Source: Candidatus Neomarinimicrobiota bacterium
GTDB lineage: Bacteria; Fidelibacterota; Marinisomatia; Marinisomatales; TCS55
Direction of reading: 5' to 3'
Assembly (NCBI GenBank): GCA_018651745.1
Contig: JABIDL010000019.1
Span: 1-49,631 of the forward strand
Length of the DNA stretch: 49,631 nt
Part shown: positions 6,150-29,291 of the stretch, piece after piece
Layout: each line of letters starts with the position of its first letter
Position numbering within the stretch: the first letter of the stretch is position 1
Position numbers and translations under genes: made by a program
The notes under the pieces: model-generated
The model's database searches: none
What the model was told of the DNA's origin: nothing
The model's input: only the letters and a program-made list of their open reading frames with translations

Positions 6150-6980
6150 TCAGGAAAAAAGTTTCTGAAGTACAGTATTTACGGAACCAGCAATTTTATT
6201 ATAATCAGGATTTTCTACATCCGATCCCTTGATTAACGATACTTTTTTCTTCGATTTCTTAAAGGCATCAAGTTTCATTATTTTACCGGAAAGTTTCTTT
6301 TTATCATCATCGAGAACAATTACAGCATCTGCACATTCTGCTGCAATTTCGAAAGCATTAATTTTTTTCCTTTTTCCAAACAACTTGTCAAAATCAAGCC
6401 CAGATTTTCGATACGATTCAACGTCAAATTTGGAATATTCATCCAAGGAGTGAACCAGAACTACGGTTTTGATATCTTTGTAGAATTTATCTTGCGCATA
6501 TAATTGTTTGTAAACAGCAGGTATTACTGATGCTTGCCAATCATTACAAATCAATATATCTGGTTTCCAAAATAAATGCGGTAATGTTGCTAAGGTCGCA
6601 TTCGCATAAAAAGTATAACGATCAGAATTATCAGCAAGAACTCTTCCATTTTTTGATTTGTAAATAAGATCCGTTAATGGTTGAAACCAATCCTCGTGTT
6701 CTAAGAAATATACTTGGACGCGAGTTTTTGGAATAAAAGCACTCTTTGCAGATGCTAATTGGTCTTGACCATCAAAAGAAAATGGGATTTCACGAAGGCG
6801 AATTACTTCACGTAAAATGTATTTCCTTTGGCTGACATAACCATATTTTGGCAACATAGTACGAATATCATGGCCCATTGTTTGTAGTGCAAGTGGTACT
6901 TTCGCCGAAAACTCTGCGAGCGGGTATGTATTAGCAAACGGAGTTATTTCCGTCGTGATATAAAACAGTTTCAACGACAC
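6150..6980 (-). CDS. Glycogen/starch synthase N-terminal (GT5) domain protein, stand-alone
   Basis: The 276-residue protein matches only the first Rossmann half of GlgA-type glucosyltransferases: LFYITTEITPFANTYPLAEF, MGHDIRTMLPKYG, YFLEHEDWF, DNSDRYTFYANATL, KPDILICNDWQ and VVLVHSLDEYSKF all align with GlgA landmarks. The C-terminal GT-B half, which binds the nucleotide sugar, is absent. The KTGGLADV loop is replaced by NTYPLAEF at 17-24, and HDWH by NDWQ at 146-149. Ordinary glycogen synthesis is therefore unlikely. A regulatory or divergent carbohydrate-binding role is an inference. The start is GTG at 6980, one base after the stop of the CpoB-like gene, so the two are coupled. Similar short GT5 proteins are known in Bacteroidetes. 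Confidence 0.75.
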   Translation of the reverse strand: MSLKLFYITTEITPFANTYPLAEFSAKVPLALQTMGHDIRTMLPKYGYVSQRKYILREVIRLREIPFSFDGQDQLASAKSAFIPKTRVQVYFLEHEDWFQPLTDLIYKSKNGRVLADNSDRYTFYANATLATLPHLFWKPDILICNDWQASVIPAVYKQLYAQDKFYKDIKTVVLVHSLDEYSKFDVESYRKSGLDFDKLFGKRKKINAFEIAAECADAVIVLDDDKKKLSGKIMKLDAFKKSKKKVSLIKGSDVENPDYNKIAGSVNTVLQKLFS

Positions 6981-24731: not shown

Positions 24732-26347
24732 TCAATTTCGTTCCGAATAGGTTTTCCATCTACTTTTTCAGGAAATGGGATGTTTAGAATTCGTGCAATA
24801 GTTGGCGCAATGTTGACGGAAATTTGTCGTTTATCATATTCTTCTGACTGAAAAGATTGCGATGAAAATACCAAAGGCACGTGCGTATCATATTCATACG
24901 GCGTTCCGTGCGTTGTTCCGATTTCTTTCCAGAGAAGATAGTGCTCTTTTTCCAGAATCATCAAATCAGGACTTAATTCAGGATGAATCATATTCCGAAA
25001 CATCCTTTGCTCTGATTCTGAGAGTCCGCTGGATTCAAGCGCACGTAAATCAACAACACCACGGATACCTTCAATATCCTTAAATGCGTTTCTGAAGATT
25101 TCAACAACAATGTTTCTATCTATGCCAAGATTATCCAGATCGTTCTGAAAAAAATACACTGTCTGCCCATAAATATGTAAAAAATCAAATGGACCGTATT
25201 TTTTCCGAATCTCTTCCTTTGCATTGTCAATACCAGCAAGAATCGTAGATCTGTTGATGCGTCCAGCTTCAATTCCGCTTAAAGAAGCATATTCAGGAAT
25301 GGTTGCAGCACCGTGGTCAGAAGTCAACACAAATAAGATATTTTCTAATCCAACTTTCATATCTAAAACCGATATAAAACGGCCAAGATATTTATCAAGT
25401 TTAAGAAACACATCTGCTATTTCTTGAGAATAAGGCCCATAATCATGACCCATATAATCTGGAGATGAGAGTCCAATAGCCAACAAATCCACTACCGAAT
25501 CCTGACCTAAATCCTCATGTTCAAAAATCGTCAGTGCTAAATCTAAAGTTGTTCTCCCAAACCAGGGGCGTCCCGGCATATCAATAAATAATTTTTCTGT
25601 TGAAATATCATCATCAAACCCTATTGGAAACACTGGAGAATAAGGCTCGGAATGATACGAATCCAATTCCCCTTCAAAAAAATCCAGGCGTGCAATATCT
25701 AAATACACAGACGGTTCCAATTCGCGAATCCAGACAGAATCTTTATACGTTTCCAAATGAAGTTTTCTATTAAATTTCCGAAGCCAAGTTGGAATTCGAT
25801 TCGCATAGTAGGATGTTGTTATAAATTGACCTTTGCTGTTGTACCATGTTGCTAAATCGGGGTTTTTCCCACCTAGAAAAATGGCAGCTCTATCCTTTCC
25901 TCCAATAGAAAATACCTTTGTTTTAGGATTGGCATCTTTCATCCAATCACCGAGTGCAGTTGCGTTTACCAATCTATAAGATCTTGGTTTCCCTTCATAA
26001 GCGATTGGTTTTGCTTCAAGATCTTCAACACAGTTCACCCGTTTTTCCCGAATTCGATCGTACCAGCGATTCCCGATAATTCCACCCGTTCCCGGATGCA
26101 TTCCTGATCCGAGAGTGAAATAGCCGGTACCTGTTACCGTGTATGCGTGATCATGGTGCGTATTTGAATATAAATGTCCATGATCCAGCAACCAGCGAAA
26201 TCCCCCGGTAAAATATGGATTGAGCCTTTCCAAAATATGATATGGAAATTGATCAATCGCAATATACACCACTAGACGAGGATTTGGATTTGCAACTCCT
26301 ACAGTAAAAACAATGGCCGCCATCGGAAGCCATTTTCTAAATATCAT
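24728..26347 (-). CDS. Alkaline phosphatase family protein, PafA/type I phosphodiesterase-like
   Basis: A 539-residue secreted or periplasmic phosphatase with an N-terminal signal sequence. It has the alkaline phosphatase superfamily metal and nucleophile sites: Asp 32 in YIAIDQF, a nucleophile Thr within YTVTGTG (70-72), Asn 93 in GNRWYD, the [14 protein letters not shown] metal block, TSDHGA, and [15 protein letters not shown] near the C-terminus. The opening plan matches PafA, the phosphate-insensitive phosphomonoesterase of Bacteroidetes. Phosphate scavenging is the likely role, but phosphodiesterase activity cannot be excluded. It overlaps tyrS and natA by 4 nt each. Confidence 0.85.
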
Positions 26348-27540
26348 ACTATAATCCTTAAAAATCTTCTTTTCCCCACTTTAATAACCACTGATTTCTC
26401 GGGTTTCAAACTGTCTTGGATATCCGCAATGGGGATGCCGTCTATTTTAACTGCATTTTGATTAATCATTCGGCGCGCTTCTCCTTTGCTCGTAACCAAT
26501 TCGGCATTAAAAATAATTTCAACGACTTTTTCTTCCTTTTTCAATTTGTATTCATCAATATTGTCCGGTGCAACTTTTCTGACAACAACTTTGTCAAAAT
26601 GCTGTTCAGCTTTTTCAGCAGCTTCTTCAGAGTAATATAATGCTACAATTCGTCGGGCTAAATCTCGCTTTATGTCTCGAGGATTTTGGGAAATATCGTT
26701 TAATTTTTCTTTTACGTCACTTACCACTTCGATGGACGCATCGGCGGCAAGTATGAAATATTTTTCAATTAAATTATCAGGAATTGACATCGTTTTTCCG
26801 TACATATTTTCAGCCGAATCGGTTAATGCAATGTGATTCCCATAAGATTTTGACATTTTTTCTACTCCATCTGTTCCTTCGAGCAATGGAGTCGTAATAA
26901 TAACTTGCGCTTTTTGTCCGTGCCTTTCTTGGAGGTCTCGCCCAACCAACAAGTTAAATGTCTGATCAGTTCCACCGAGTTCTACATCTGCTTCCAAATG
27001 AACCGAATCCATTCCTTGCGCCAGCGGATACAAAAATTCATGGATTGAAATGGGTGTTTTTGAGTCAAATCGTTTCGTGAAATCATCACGCTCAAGCATC
27101 CGCGCGACAGTGTATTTACTAGCAACATCAATCACATCACTAAAATTCATTGCATTAAGCCATTCTGAATTATATACAATGTTAATCTTGGTTATATCAA
27201 GTATAACCTTAGCTTGATCAACAAATGATTTTGCGTTGGATTTTGCTTCTTGCAATGTGAGCTGTGGACGAGTTTTATTCCTACCGGAAGGATCGCCGAT
27301 CATGGCGGTAAAATCGCCAATTACTAGAATTGCGTCATGCCCAAGATCTTGAAAATGTCTAAGTTTTCGTAATACTACTCCATGACCAATATGTAAATCC
27401 GGTCGACTTGGATCGCATCCGAGTTTTATTATTAATGGACGATTTTCTTTAAGTTTAGAAACCAATTCCTTTTCGGGAATAATGTCTTCAACTCCGTGTT
27501 GAATGATTGCTAACTGTTCTTTAATTGGTAAAAATGTCAT
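26344..27540 (-). CDS. tyrS: Tyrosyl-tRNA synthetase (TyrZ type)
   Basis: Class I aminoacyl-tRNA synthetase that charges tRNA-Tyr. The 398-residue protein has the HIGH motif (PDLHIGHG, His 50 to His 53), the tyrosine pocket [16 protein letters not shown] and a KMSKS motif in EKMSKSYGN. That motif and length put it with the TyrZ-like bacterial branch. A C-terminal S4 RNA-binding domain is present ([18 protein letters not shown]). It is coupled to smpB upstream by a 4-nt overlap. Confidence 0.95.
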
Positions 27541-27995
27541 TTGTATTGTTCCTTGATTTCTTTATCAGTTTCACGACGGATATCTAATTCTTTTTTTGCT
27601 GCCTTTTTGTCGTAATGTTTTTTTCCTTTTGCTAACCCAATTTGCACTTTTGCCCATCCCCGAGAATTAAAATACATTTTCAGTGGAACGGCAGTCCTGC
27701 CTTTGATATCCAATTGTTTTTGAATGCTATTAATTTCCTTAGCATGTAATAAAAGTTTTCGACTTCGAATAGGATCATGAGAAACATACCCTTGATGGGA
27801 ATACGGACTGAAATGCGCACCCACAAGAAAGACCTCACCCCTACGAATGTGAATGTACGATTCCTGAAGGTTTGCACGTCCTTCTCTCAAGCTTTTCACT
27901 TCGGTACCAAGTAATTCGACTCCGGCATCAAATGTTTCAAGAATATGATATTCGTGACGTGCTTTCCTATTTGTAACAACAATGTTTGTTTCCAT
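27537..27995 (-). CDS. smpB: SsrA-binding protein SmpB
   Basis: Binds tmRNA and delivers it to stalled ribosomes for trans-translation. From ATG at 27995 the protein has 152 residues, the family length, starting [20 protein letters not shown]. The conserved [23 protein letters not shown] and the basic C-terminal tail [20 protein letters not shown] are recognisable by position (about 30-52 and 123-142). An upstream start at 28130 would run into the tRNA gene on the other strand and is rejected. The ssrA gene is not in the window. Confidence 0.95.
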
Positions 27996-28054: not shown

Positions 28055-28084
28055 TTGAAATCTGTGGAGCGTTACAACTAAAAT
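28055..28084 (+). promoter_or_regulatory. Probable sigma70-type promoter of tRNA-Leu
   Basis: TTGAAA (28055-28060) and TAAAAT (28079-28084) are separated by 18 bases. The second box ends 16 bases before the tRNA. Spacing and sequence are reasonable for a housekeeping promoter serving the tRNA and possibly the following gene. Not tested by transcription data. Confidence 0.4.
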
Positions 28085-28100
28085 CCGCAATGTAAAATTT

Positions 28101-28184
28101 GCCCGGGTGGTGAAATTGGTAGACACGCACGGTTCAGGTCCGTGTGCTCTAACAGGCATGCTGGTTCGAGTCCAGTCTCGGGCA
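28101..28184 (+). tRNA. tRNA-Leu (anticodon CAG)
   Basis: A cloverleaf can be folded by eye. The acceptor stem GCCCGGG pairs with CTCGGGC (one G-T wobble), discriminator A is at 28184, and no CCA is encoded. The anticodon stem CACGG/CCGTG closes a seven-base loop TTCAGGT with anticodon CAG at 28135-28137. A long variable arm (TGC...GCA) is as expected of tRNA-Leu, and the T arm is CTGG-TTCGAGT-CCAG. It reads CUG codons. Confidence 0.93.
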
Positions 28185-28196
28185 CTTTTTAATAAA

Positions 28197-29291
28197 ATGA
28201 ATATTCTATTACTAGAATCCTATTTTACCGGTTCACATAAACAATGGGCTGAAGGATACGCAAAAAATAGTCGGCATGATGTCCGGATAATTTGTTTAAA
28301 AGGACAATTTTGGAAATGGCGAATGCACGGAGGTGCTGTCACTTTAGCACGAGAATTCAACAACATGAATTGGCGTCCGGATATAATTCTTGCGACAGAT
28401 ATGTTGGATTTGACCACATTCCTTTCCCTCACAAAAAATAATTCTCATGGAATTCGCACAGCTATGTATTTCCATGAAAACCAAATTTCGTATCCGTGGT
28501 CATCTACAGATCGGGATATTCTAAATAAGCGTGATACCCATTATGGATTTATCAATTATACTTCTGCACTCGCTGCGGATACTGTTTTTTTTAATTCTGA
28601 ATTCCACATGGATTCTTTCCTCAAAGCACTTCCACCTTTCCTTCGCCAATTCCCTGATCATCAAGAATTGGAATCAGTAGATTTTATTCGCGATAAAAGC
28701 CAATTGCTCTACTTAGGGTTGGATTTACAAAAATTTGATGCACAAAAAATAAATCACGAGAAAACTCCGATTATCCTTTGGAATCACCGCTGGGAATATG
28801 ATAAAAACCCGGACACTTTTTTCTCGGTTTTAAAAAAAGTGAACAAAAGCGGAATTGATTTTAAACTGGCTGTTTTAGGCGAGAATTTTAGTCAATTTCC
28901 TGAAACTTTTTCTGAAGCAGAAAAAACGTTTCAACAACACATTGTACAATGGGGTTATTCTGCTTCCTTTCCCGATTATGCTCAATGGCTCTGGAAGGCA
29001 GATATTATCCCCGTTACATCCAATCAAGAATTTTTTGGGGGAAGCGTGATGGAGGCTATGTATTGCAATACGTGGCCAATTTTACCCAATAGACTGACGT
29101 ATCCGGAATTACTTCCACCTGATCTGCATCATGGACATTTATATGAGAATGAAAATGATTTATGTGAGAAAATAATAGATGCGATTCAAAATATCAAACA
29201 GGTCAGATCTACCTATTTTCACAAAATCGCAAAACCTTTTGATTGGGAAAGCATGGCGCCCAAATACGACGACGCCATGGAAAATATATGA
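28197..29291 (+). CDS. DUF3524 glycosyltransferase, homologue of tRNA-queuosine mannosyltransferase (QTMAN/GTDC1)
   Basis: The 364-residue protein has a GT-B plan that matches the animal protein GTDC1, identified as the enzyme that mannosylates queuosine in tRNA-Asp. Shared blocks are ESYFTGSHKQW (7-17), FWKWRMHGGA (38-47), MYFHENQISYP (90-100), FFNSEFHMDSF (131-141), WNHRWEYDKNPDTFF (195-209), LAVLGENF (224-231) and EFFGGSVMEAMYC (278-290) with TYPE after it. The N-terminal DUF3524 half and the C-terminal GT1-like half are both complete. A long insertion present in the human protein is absent. The ATG at 28197 lies only 12 bases after tRNA-Leu, so the two may share a transcript. Whether bacterial members act on tRNA is not settled to my knowledge. 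Confidence 0.8.
   Translation: MNILLLESYFTGSHKQWAEGYAKNSRHDVRIICLKGQFWKWRMHGGAVTLAREFNNMNWRPDIILATDMLDLTTFLSLTKNNSHGIRTAMYFHENQISYPWSSTDRDILNKRDTHYGFINYTSALAADTVFFNSEFHMDSFLKALPPFLRQFPDHQELESVDFIRDKSQLLYLGLDLQKFDAQKINHEKTPIILWNHRWEYDKNPDTFFSVLKKVNKSGIDFKLAVLGENFSQFPETFSEAEKTFQQHIVQWGYSASFPDYAQWLWKADIIPVTSNQEFFGGSVMEAMYCNTWPILPNRLTYPELLPPDLHHGHLYENENDLCEKIIDAIQNIKQVRSTYFHKIAKPFDWESMAPKYDDAMENI

What the first reader, a model, noticed from the sequence alone, without database searches (positions are those of the whole stretch)
28101..29291. A bacterial homologue of the queuosine-tRNA mannosyltransferase sits 12 bases behind a tRNA-Leu gene
The 364-residue protein shares at least seven well-spaced blocks with GTDC1/QTMAN (for example SHKQW, FHENQ, HRWEYDKNP, EFFG), so a tRNA-glycosylating role is plausible. 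GTDC1 modifies queuosine in tRNA-Asp; bacterial tRNA glycosylation of this kind is, to my knowledge, not established. The neighbouring tRNA reads CUG and has no Q34 position, so it is probably not the substrate. The close spacing may only mean a shared promoter and processing.
Basis: partly seen in the sequence, partly recalled or inferred. Interest (0 to 1): 0.65.

Follow-up and report, generated by a model that had tools for sequence, protein, structure and literature searches.

The report
Bacterial relative of animal tRNA mannosyltransferase
This marine bacterium carries an intact relative of the animal enzyme that puts a mannose on the modified wobble base queuosine of tRNA-Asp, together with the genes to make both queuosine and the mannose donor, so bacteria probably also make sugar-decorated queuosine, which no paper found here has reported.

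Summary
An intact 364-codon gene (28197-29291, +) starts 11 bases (ARAGORN) or 12 bases (Rfam) after tRNA-Leu(CAG). Its N-terminal half matches the whole Pfam model QTMAN_N (206 bits, E 4.5e-61) and its C-terminal half a GT1/GT4 domain; the AlphaFold model (pLDDT 93.8) is GT-B and matches retaining GT4 enzymes. The family is a widespread chromosomal bacterial family: 590 or more encoding stretches in at least nine phyla, strongly conserved, not found in phages, plasmids or viral contigs. The window's genome has Tgt, QueA, QueG and a ManC-type GDP-mannose synthase, so acceptor and donor can be made; it has no GluQRS. In the phylum, all 32 near-complete genomes with the gene have QueG, against 45 of 66 without it, but phylogeny explains much of that. 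The tRNA-Leu neighbour is a synteny of the phylum, split by a terminator-like hairpin in some relatives, and is not evidence about the substrate. Most likely function: a bacterial Q34-tRNA hexosyltransferase, probably mannose from GDP-mannose. Sugar, hydroxyl and tRNA are untested. Desulfuromonadales carry both this gene and GluQRS, so tRNA-Asp as sole substrate is not safe. A new member of a known family; what would be new is the modification in bacteria.

The parts
28197..29291 (+). QTMAN-family glycosyltransferase gene, 364 aa, ATG start, TGA stop
   Evidence: PF12038 206 bits over residues 2-175; PF00534 50 bits over 181-332; start supported by relatives
28200..28721 (+). QTMAN_N domain (acceptor-side Rossmann domain of the GT-B fold)
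28473..28484 (+). HENQ motif, residues 93-96, just after a beta strand ending at residue 92; inferred active-site loop
   Evidence: H93, E94, Q96 invariant in 59 family members, N95 nearly so; placement from the model; role inferred from GT4 knowledge
28788..28805 (+). R198...K203 of HRWEYDK; inferred donor-diphosphate-binding pair, as in the GT4 R-x4-K motif
   Evidence: invariant in 59 family members; role inferred
29028..29054 (+). E278-x7-E286 motif (EFFGGSVME), a GT4 hallmark; inferred donor-sugar and nucleotide contacts
   Evidence: only E-x7-E in the protein; consensus DFFGxSVVEA in the family, so the first acidic residue is often Asp in relatives
28101..28185 (+). tRNA-Leu(CAG), no encoded CCA; syntenic neighbour, not a Q34 tRNA
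   Evidence: same order in many relatives of the phylum with spacing 11-644
28055..28084 (+). promoter-like site upstream of the tRNA (TTGAAA-18-TAAAAT)
   Evidence: consensus match only; 9 sites found against 5.0 expected in shuffles
27540..27995 (-). smpB, divergent neighbour, conserved beside the gene in the phylum
   Evidence: NF003843 194.7 bits; neighbourhood
26344..27540 (-). tyrS, tyrosyl-tRNA synthetase, conserved with smpB
   Evidence: TIGR00234 371 bits; neighbourhood

Best explanation
The gene encodes a cytoplasmic, retaining GT-B/GT4 glycosyltransferase that adds one hexose, most likely alpha-mannose from GDP-mannose, to a hydroxyl of the cyclopentenediol of queuosine at position 34 of a GUN-anticodon tRNA, most likely tRNA-Asp. 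It acts after Tgt, QueA and QueG have made Q. Shown here: family, fold, motifs, intactness, strong conservation, and presence in the same genome of the enzymes for acceptor (Q) and donor (GDP-mannose). Inferred: that the acceptor is Q-tRNA (from family membership and co-occurrence), that the sugar is mannose, and which hydroxyl and which tRNA are used. The tRNA-Leu next door is a positional accident kept in this phylum; in this strain the gene may be read from the tRNA promoter.
For: QTMAN_N over the full model, 4.5e-61, and in all 59 aligned members. Model pLDDT 93.8, pTM 0.91; best PDB folds are retaining GT4 and related enzymes, including the GDP-mannose enzyme PimA (2gej, E 3.4e-10). Human manQ carries alpha-mannose from GDP-mannose (PMC8654956; PMC12518689), which fits a retaining GT4 enzyme. 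Genome G000: Tgt 490 bits, QueA 418, QueG 321 over cut-off 200, ManC-type protein with GMP beta-helix 52 bits over cut-off 27. Phylum, genomes at least 90% complete: QueG in 32 of 32 with the gene, 45 of 66 without. In a panel of 58 carriers from this and other phyla, QueG or QueH over cut-off in 54. 51 invariant columns in 59 sequences. Usually one copy per genome, not found in phages, plasmids or viral contigs, and no recurrent sugar-gene cluster around it.
Against: No biochemical data. Tgt is near-universal in the groups sampled (94 of 98, 147 of 150), so its co-occurrence proves little. The QueG association is confounded by phylogeny: 15 of the 21 genomes without QueG lie in two families, and one of these has reduced genomes. 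Four Desulfuromonadales-type carriers, including the isolate Geomonas paludis, also have a true short GluQRS, the enzyme that already modifies Q in tRNA-Asp. No queuosine gene lies within about 6 kb of the gene in the fetched loci. The protein is mildly acidic (pI 5.8). The human protein was not compared directly.
Confidence: 0.65

Rival explanations
1. It glycosylates Q34, but with another sugar, at another hydroxyl or on another tRNA than the animal enzyme (for example tRNA-Tyr, -His or -Asn, or a glucosyl-Q).
For: Family members co-occur with GluQRS in Desulfuromonadales, where Q of tRNA-Asp would already be taken. Eight of 58 carriers have no ManC-type hit over the cut-off. The best PDB matches include UDP- and ADP-sugar enzymes.
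Against: ManC is present in the window's genome and in 50 of 58 carriers. The motifs of the family are strongly conserved. In human cells the enzyme is strictly selective for its hydroxyl (PMC12518689).
Confidence: 0.2
2. It is an ordinary GT4 glycosyltransferase for a glycan, glycolipid or small molecule, and the Pfam name over-reaches from one animal member to a bacterial family with another job.
For: The C-terminal domain is a generic GT1/GT4 domain; weak NCBIfam hits are EPS glycosyltransferases far below cut-off; the fold is shared with BshA, MshA, PimA and glycogen synthases.
Against: It lies alone beside smpB-tyrS or in unrelated contexts, not in recurrent sugar operons. It is far more conserved (51 invariant columns) than I would expect of surface-glycan enzymes. 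The N-terminal domain matches the QTMAN model end to end. It is never found without QueG in the near-complete genomes of the phylum.
Confidence: 0.13
3. The gene and tRNA-Leu(CAG) form a functional unit: the enzyme modifies this tRNA or is regulated through it.
For: Same-strand order with spacing 11-12 in the window and the same tRNA upstream in many phylum members; a promoter-like site before the tRNA.
Against: Only seen in this phylum. Spacing varies from 11 to 644 and a terminator-like hairpin with a T-run separates the two in L002, L005, L009 and L027. CAG has C34, so no queuosine.
Confidence: 0.02

Closest known systems
Animal QTMAN (GTDC1), tRNA-queuosine alpha-mannosyltransferase
   Same: Same Pfam N-terminal domain over its full length and a GT4-type C-terminal domain; acceptor pathway (Q) and donor pathway (GDP-mannose) present in the genome.
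   Different: Bacterial host that makes Q itself; activity, sugar and tRNA untested; some relatives share a genome with GluQRS.
GluQRS (YadB), bacterial glutamyl-Q tRNA-Asp synthetase
   Same: A bacterial enzyme that further decorates Q34.
   Different: Adds glutamate, not sugar; an unrelated fold (GluRS paralogue). Not in this genome: the only hit is full-length GltX, 484 aa.
PimA, BshA, MshA and other retaining GT4 enzymes
   Same: GT-B fold, E-x7-E motif, R...K donor motif.
   Different: Sequence identity 11-17% in the structural matches; other acceptors; the QTMAN_N domain is specific to this family.
QTGAL (B3GNTL1), Q-tRNA galactosyltransferase
   Same: Glycosylates Q34 (tRNA-Tyr) in animals.
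   Different: A different glycosyltransferase, beta-galactose on the other hydroxyl (PMC12518689); not in question here.

Membership tests
QTMAN family (PF12038 + GT4 domain) | QTMAN_N domain over the curated cut-off | tested here: met
   206 bits against 25, model 1-168 of 168
QTMAN family (PF12038 + GT4 domain) | C-terminal GT1/GT4 domain with E-x7-E | tested here: met
   PF00534 50.2 bits against 26.4; E278-x7-E286
QTMAN family (PF12038 + GT4 domain) | GT-B fold of retaining glycosyltransferases | tested here: met
   model pLDDT 93.8; Foldseek hits to GT4 and related enzymes, E down to 4.5e-14
Functional Q34-tRNA alpha-mannosyltransferase | Queuosine made in the same cell (Tgt, QueA, QueG or QueH) | tested here: met
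Functional Q34-tRNA alpha-mannosyltransferase | GDP-mannose available (mannose-1-phosphate guanylyltransferase) | tested here: met
   352-aa ManC-type protein with PF22640 over cut-off; below the cut-off of the bifunctional model TIGR01479, of which it covers positions 1-351 of 467
Functional Q34-tRNA alpha-mannosyltransferase | Co-occurrence with the completed Q pathway across genomes | tested here: inconclusive
   32 of 32 against 45 of 66 in the phylum, Fisher p 1.2e-4, but not corrected for phylogeny; 54 of 58 carriers with QueG or QueH
Functional Q34-tRNA alpha-mannosyltransferase | Transfers mannose to Q34 of tRNA-Asp | not testable with these tools
   needs LC-MS or an in-vitro assay
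Functional Q34-tRNA alpha-mannosyltransferase | Substrate pocket like human QTMAN | not tested
   no QTMAN structure found in the PDB by sequence; a human sequence may not be folded here
GluQRS | Short GluRS-like protein over the TIGR03838 cut-off in this genome | tested here: not met
   only GltX, 484 aa, 253 bits against cut-off 276.7

The most novel reading that the evidence does not exclude
Glycosylated queuosine is a widespread bacterial wobble modification, present in at least nine phyla and missed because the usual laboratory bacteria lack the gene; in lineages that also carry GluQRS it acts on another tRNA or hydroxyl, and the animal enzyme is a late branch of this bacterial family.
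Probability: 0.5. Interest if true: 0.7.

Novelty: new member of a known kind. Interest (0 to 1): 0.5.

Why it matters
Glycosylated queuosine is described as a feature of animals, and its purpose is unknown (PMC12518689, PMC8654956). If many bacteria make it, the modification gains simple genetic systems, an evolutionary source for the animal enzyme, and a third bacterial form of Q beside oQ and GluQ. The gene's absence from the 14 control genomes, among them E. coli and B. subtilis, would explain why it has not been seen. E. coli should make Q and GDP-mannose, so a single-gene expression test is cheap.

Tried and rejected
Functional tie to tRNA-Leu: rejected. Neighbouring queuosine genes: none among the fetched loci by BLAST with Tgt, QueA, QueG and QueH seeds (a first attempt used some wrong seed ORFs and is discarded). 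Exclusion between GluQRS and this family: rejected, both occur in Desulfuromonadales. Tgt dependence in the Chloroflexota class of G260: uninformative, Tgt in 147 of 150 while the gene is in 63 of 150. Mobile element or phage gene: no match in phages, plasmids or viral contigs. Solved-structure relative by sequence: none with the single protein; only a generic glycosyltransferase fragment, 5i45, with the profile.

Full report
Observation. The tRNA is tRNA-Leu with anticodon CAG at 28101-28185 (ARAGORN; Rfam ends it at 28184). The next ATG, at 28197, opens a 364-codon gene that ends with the stop at 29291. The gap is therefore 11 or 12 bases. A longer mechanical ORF that starts inside the tRNA is an artefact: relatives begin at the same M-x-I-L-L-x-E residues. 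The protein matches Pfam QTMAN_N (tRNA-queuosine alpha-mannosyltransferase N-terminal) over the full model with 206 bits, E 4.5e-61, and a C-terminal GT1/GT4 domain with 50 bits. NCBIfam has no equivalog for it; its best hits are exopolysaccharide enzymes far below their cut-offs.

Family. Of 245 genomes of the same phylum, 81 carry the gene, the window's genome G000 among them. In a Chloroflexota class 63 of 150 genomes have it. Fourteen control genomes, E. coli and B. subtilis among them, have none. No match in 50,697 phage records or 72,556 plasmid records and none confirmed in viral contigs. The tree groups rows mostly by phylum, with some mixing among Chloroflexota, deltaproteobacteria and Planctomycetota (MAG binning errors are possible). 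Over 59 members, 51 columns are invariant and mean column identity is 61%. This looks like an old, mostly vertically kept chromosomal gene with many losses or gains.

Anatomy. The AlphaFold model is confident (pLDDT 93.8, pTM 0.91) and matches retaining GT-B enzymes, for instance GlgM, BshA, MshA and the GDP-mannose enzyme PimA. E278-x7-E286 is the only E-x7-E in the protein; the family consensus has Asp at the first position. R198 and K203 fall where GT4 enzymes hold the donor diphosphate, and H93 follows a beta strand where PimA-like enzymes have their active-site histidine; these last two assignments are inference from established GT4 knowledge. The invariant GSHxxW, WKWRM, HEnQxxYPW and NS segments lie in the N-terminal, acceptor-side domain.

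Pathway in the same genome. G000 has Tgt (490 bits), QueA (418) and QueG (321), each over its curated cut-off and confirmed on the retrieved proteins. It has no QueH and no GluQRS; the only GluQRS-model hit is full-length GltX. It has a 352-aa ManC-type guanylyltransferase with the ManC beta-helix domain, so GDP-mannose should be available.

Co-occurrence. In the phylum, among genomes at least 90% complete, QueG is over cut-off in 32 of 32 carriers and 45 of 66 non-carriers (Fisher p 1.2e-4). Fifteen of the 21 genomes without QueG belong to two families (f9, reduced genomes; f23, where QueH replaces QueG in the one genome tested), so the p-value overstates the case. Four tested members of the reduced genus lack QueG, QueH, ManC and this gene alike. 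In a panel of 58 carriers from many phyla, QueG or QueH is over cut-off in 54; the four exceptions are metagenome-derived drafts. QueA is found in 56 of 58. Tgt is over cut-off in 44 of 51, and three of the six with no match at all still have QueA, which suggests assembly gaps. Tgt is nearly universal in the groups searched, so that part does not discriminate.

Neighbourhood. In Neomarinimicrobiota the gene often lies beside divergent smpB-tyrS, with tRNA-Leu(CAG) upstream on the same strand at 11 to 644 bases. In L002, L005, L009 and L027 an intrinsic-terminator-like hairpin with a T-run separates tRNA and gene. In the loci from other phyla the tRNA-Leu is absent. In the window a promoter-like site precedes the tRNA, so read-through is possible, but the pairing carries no information on the substrate. 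No queuosine gene was found in the fetched flanks.

Explanation. The best reading is a bacterial Q34-tRNA hexosyltransferase, most likely using GDP-mannose. Human manQ has alpha-mannose on the allylic hydroxyl of Q in tRNA-Asp, and mannose transfer to Q from GDP-mannose has been shown (PMC8654956; PMC12518689); a retaining GT4 enzyme fits. What is shown is family, fold, motifs and the presence of both pathways; the reaction is inferred. The main doubt about the exact substrate comes from Geomonas and three relatives that carry both this gene and a true short GluQRS: either two decorations share tRNA-Asp, or the bacterial enzyme uses another tRNA or hydroxyl there.

Literature and novelty. Nine searches of an open-access library found five papers that name QTMAN; I read the relevant passages of three and none concerns a bacterial enzyme. 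The founding paper (Cell 2023) is not held, so whether it mentions bacterial homologues is unknown to me. Pfam already names the domain after QTMAN, so the prediction is implicit in public annotation. I file it as a new member of a known family with an untested and testable bacterial function.

Noticed in passing
L109 (G000 contig C10), 1213-2271 and 13108-14241: The ManC-type guanylyltransferase and tgt lie about 11 kb apart on one strand. In many other genomes of the phylum, with or without the QTMAN-family gene, the hits of the two searches also lie within about 5-25 kb on one contig. Probably synteny; not tested.
   Followed up: partly
G266, G287, G288, G290 (Desulfuromonadales-type genomes, including Geomonas paludis): These genomes carry a true short GluQRS, the QTMAN-family gene and two tgt hits (in G266 the second is a fragment), so they may have more than one Q-type product.
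   Followed up: partly
family f9 genus g16 of the phylum (G039, G048, G049, G058 and others): Reduced 0.8-1.0 Mb genomes keep Tgt and QueA but have no QueG or QueH hit, so their tRNA may stop at epoxyqueuosine.
   Followed up: partly
window 6150-6980, strand -: A 276-aa protein that holds only the N-terminal starch-synthase domain (PF08323, 142 bits), without the C-terminal glycosyltransferase half.
   Followed up: no
L028, 5877-6000: Between tRNA-Leu and the gene lies a stretch that repeats the tRNA 3' end (CCAGTCTCGGGCA), perhaps a scar of a tRNA-end duplication or insertion.
   Followed up: no
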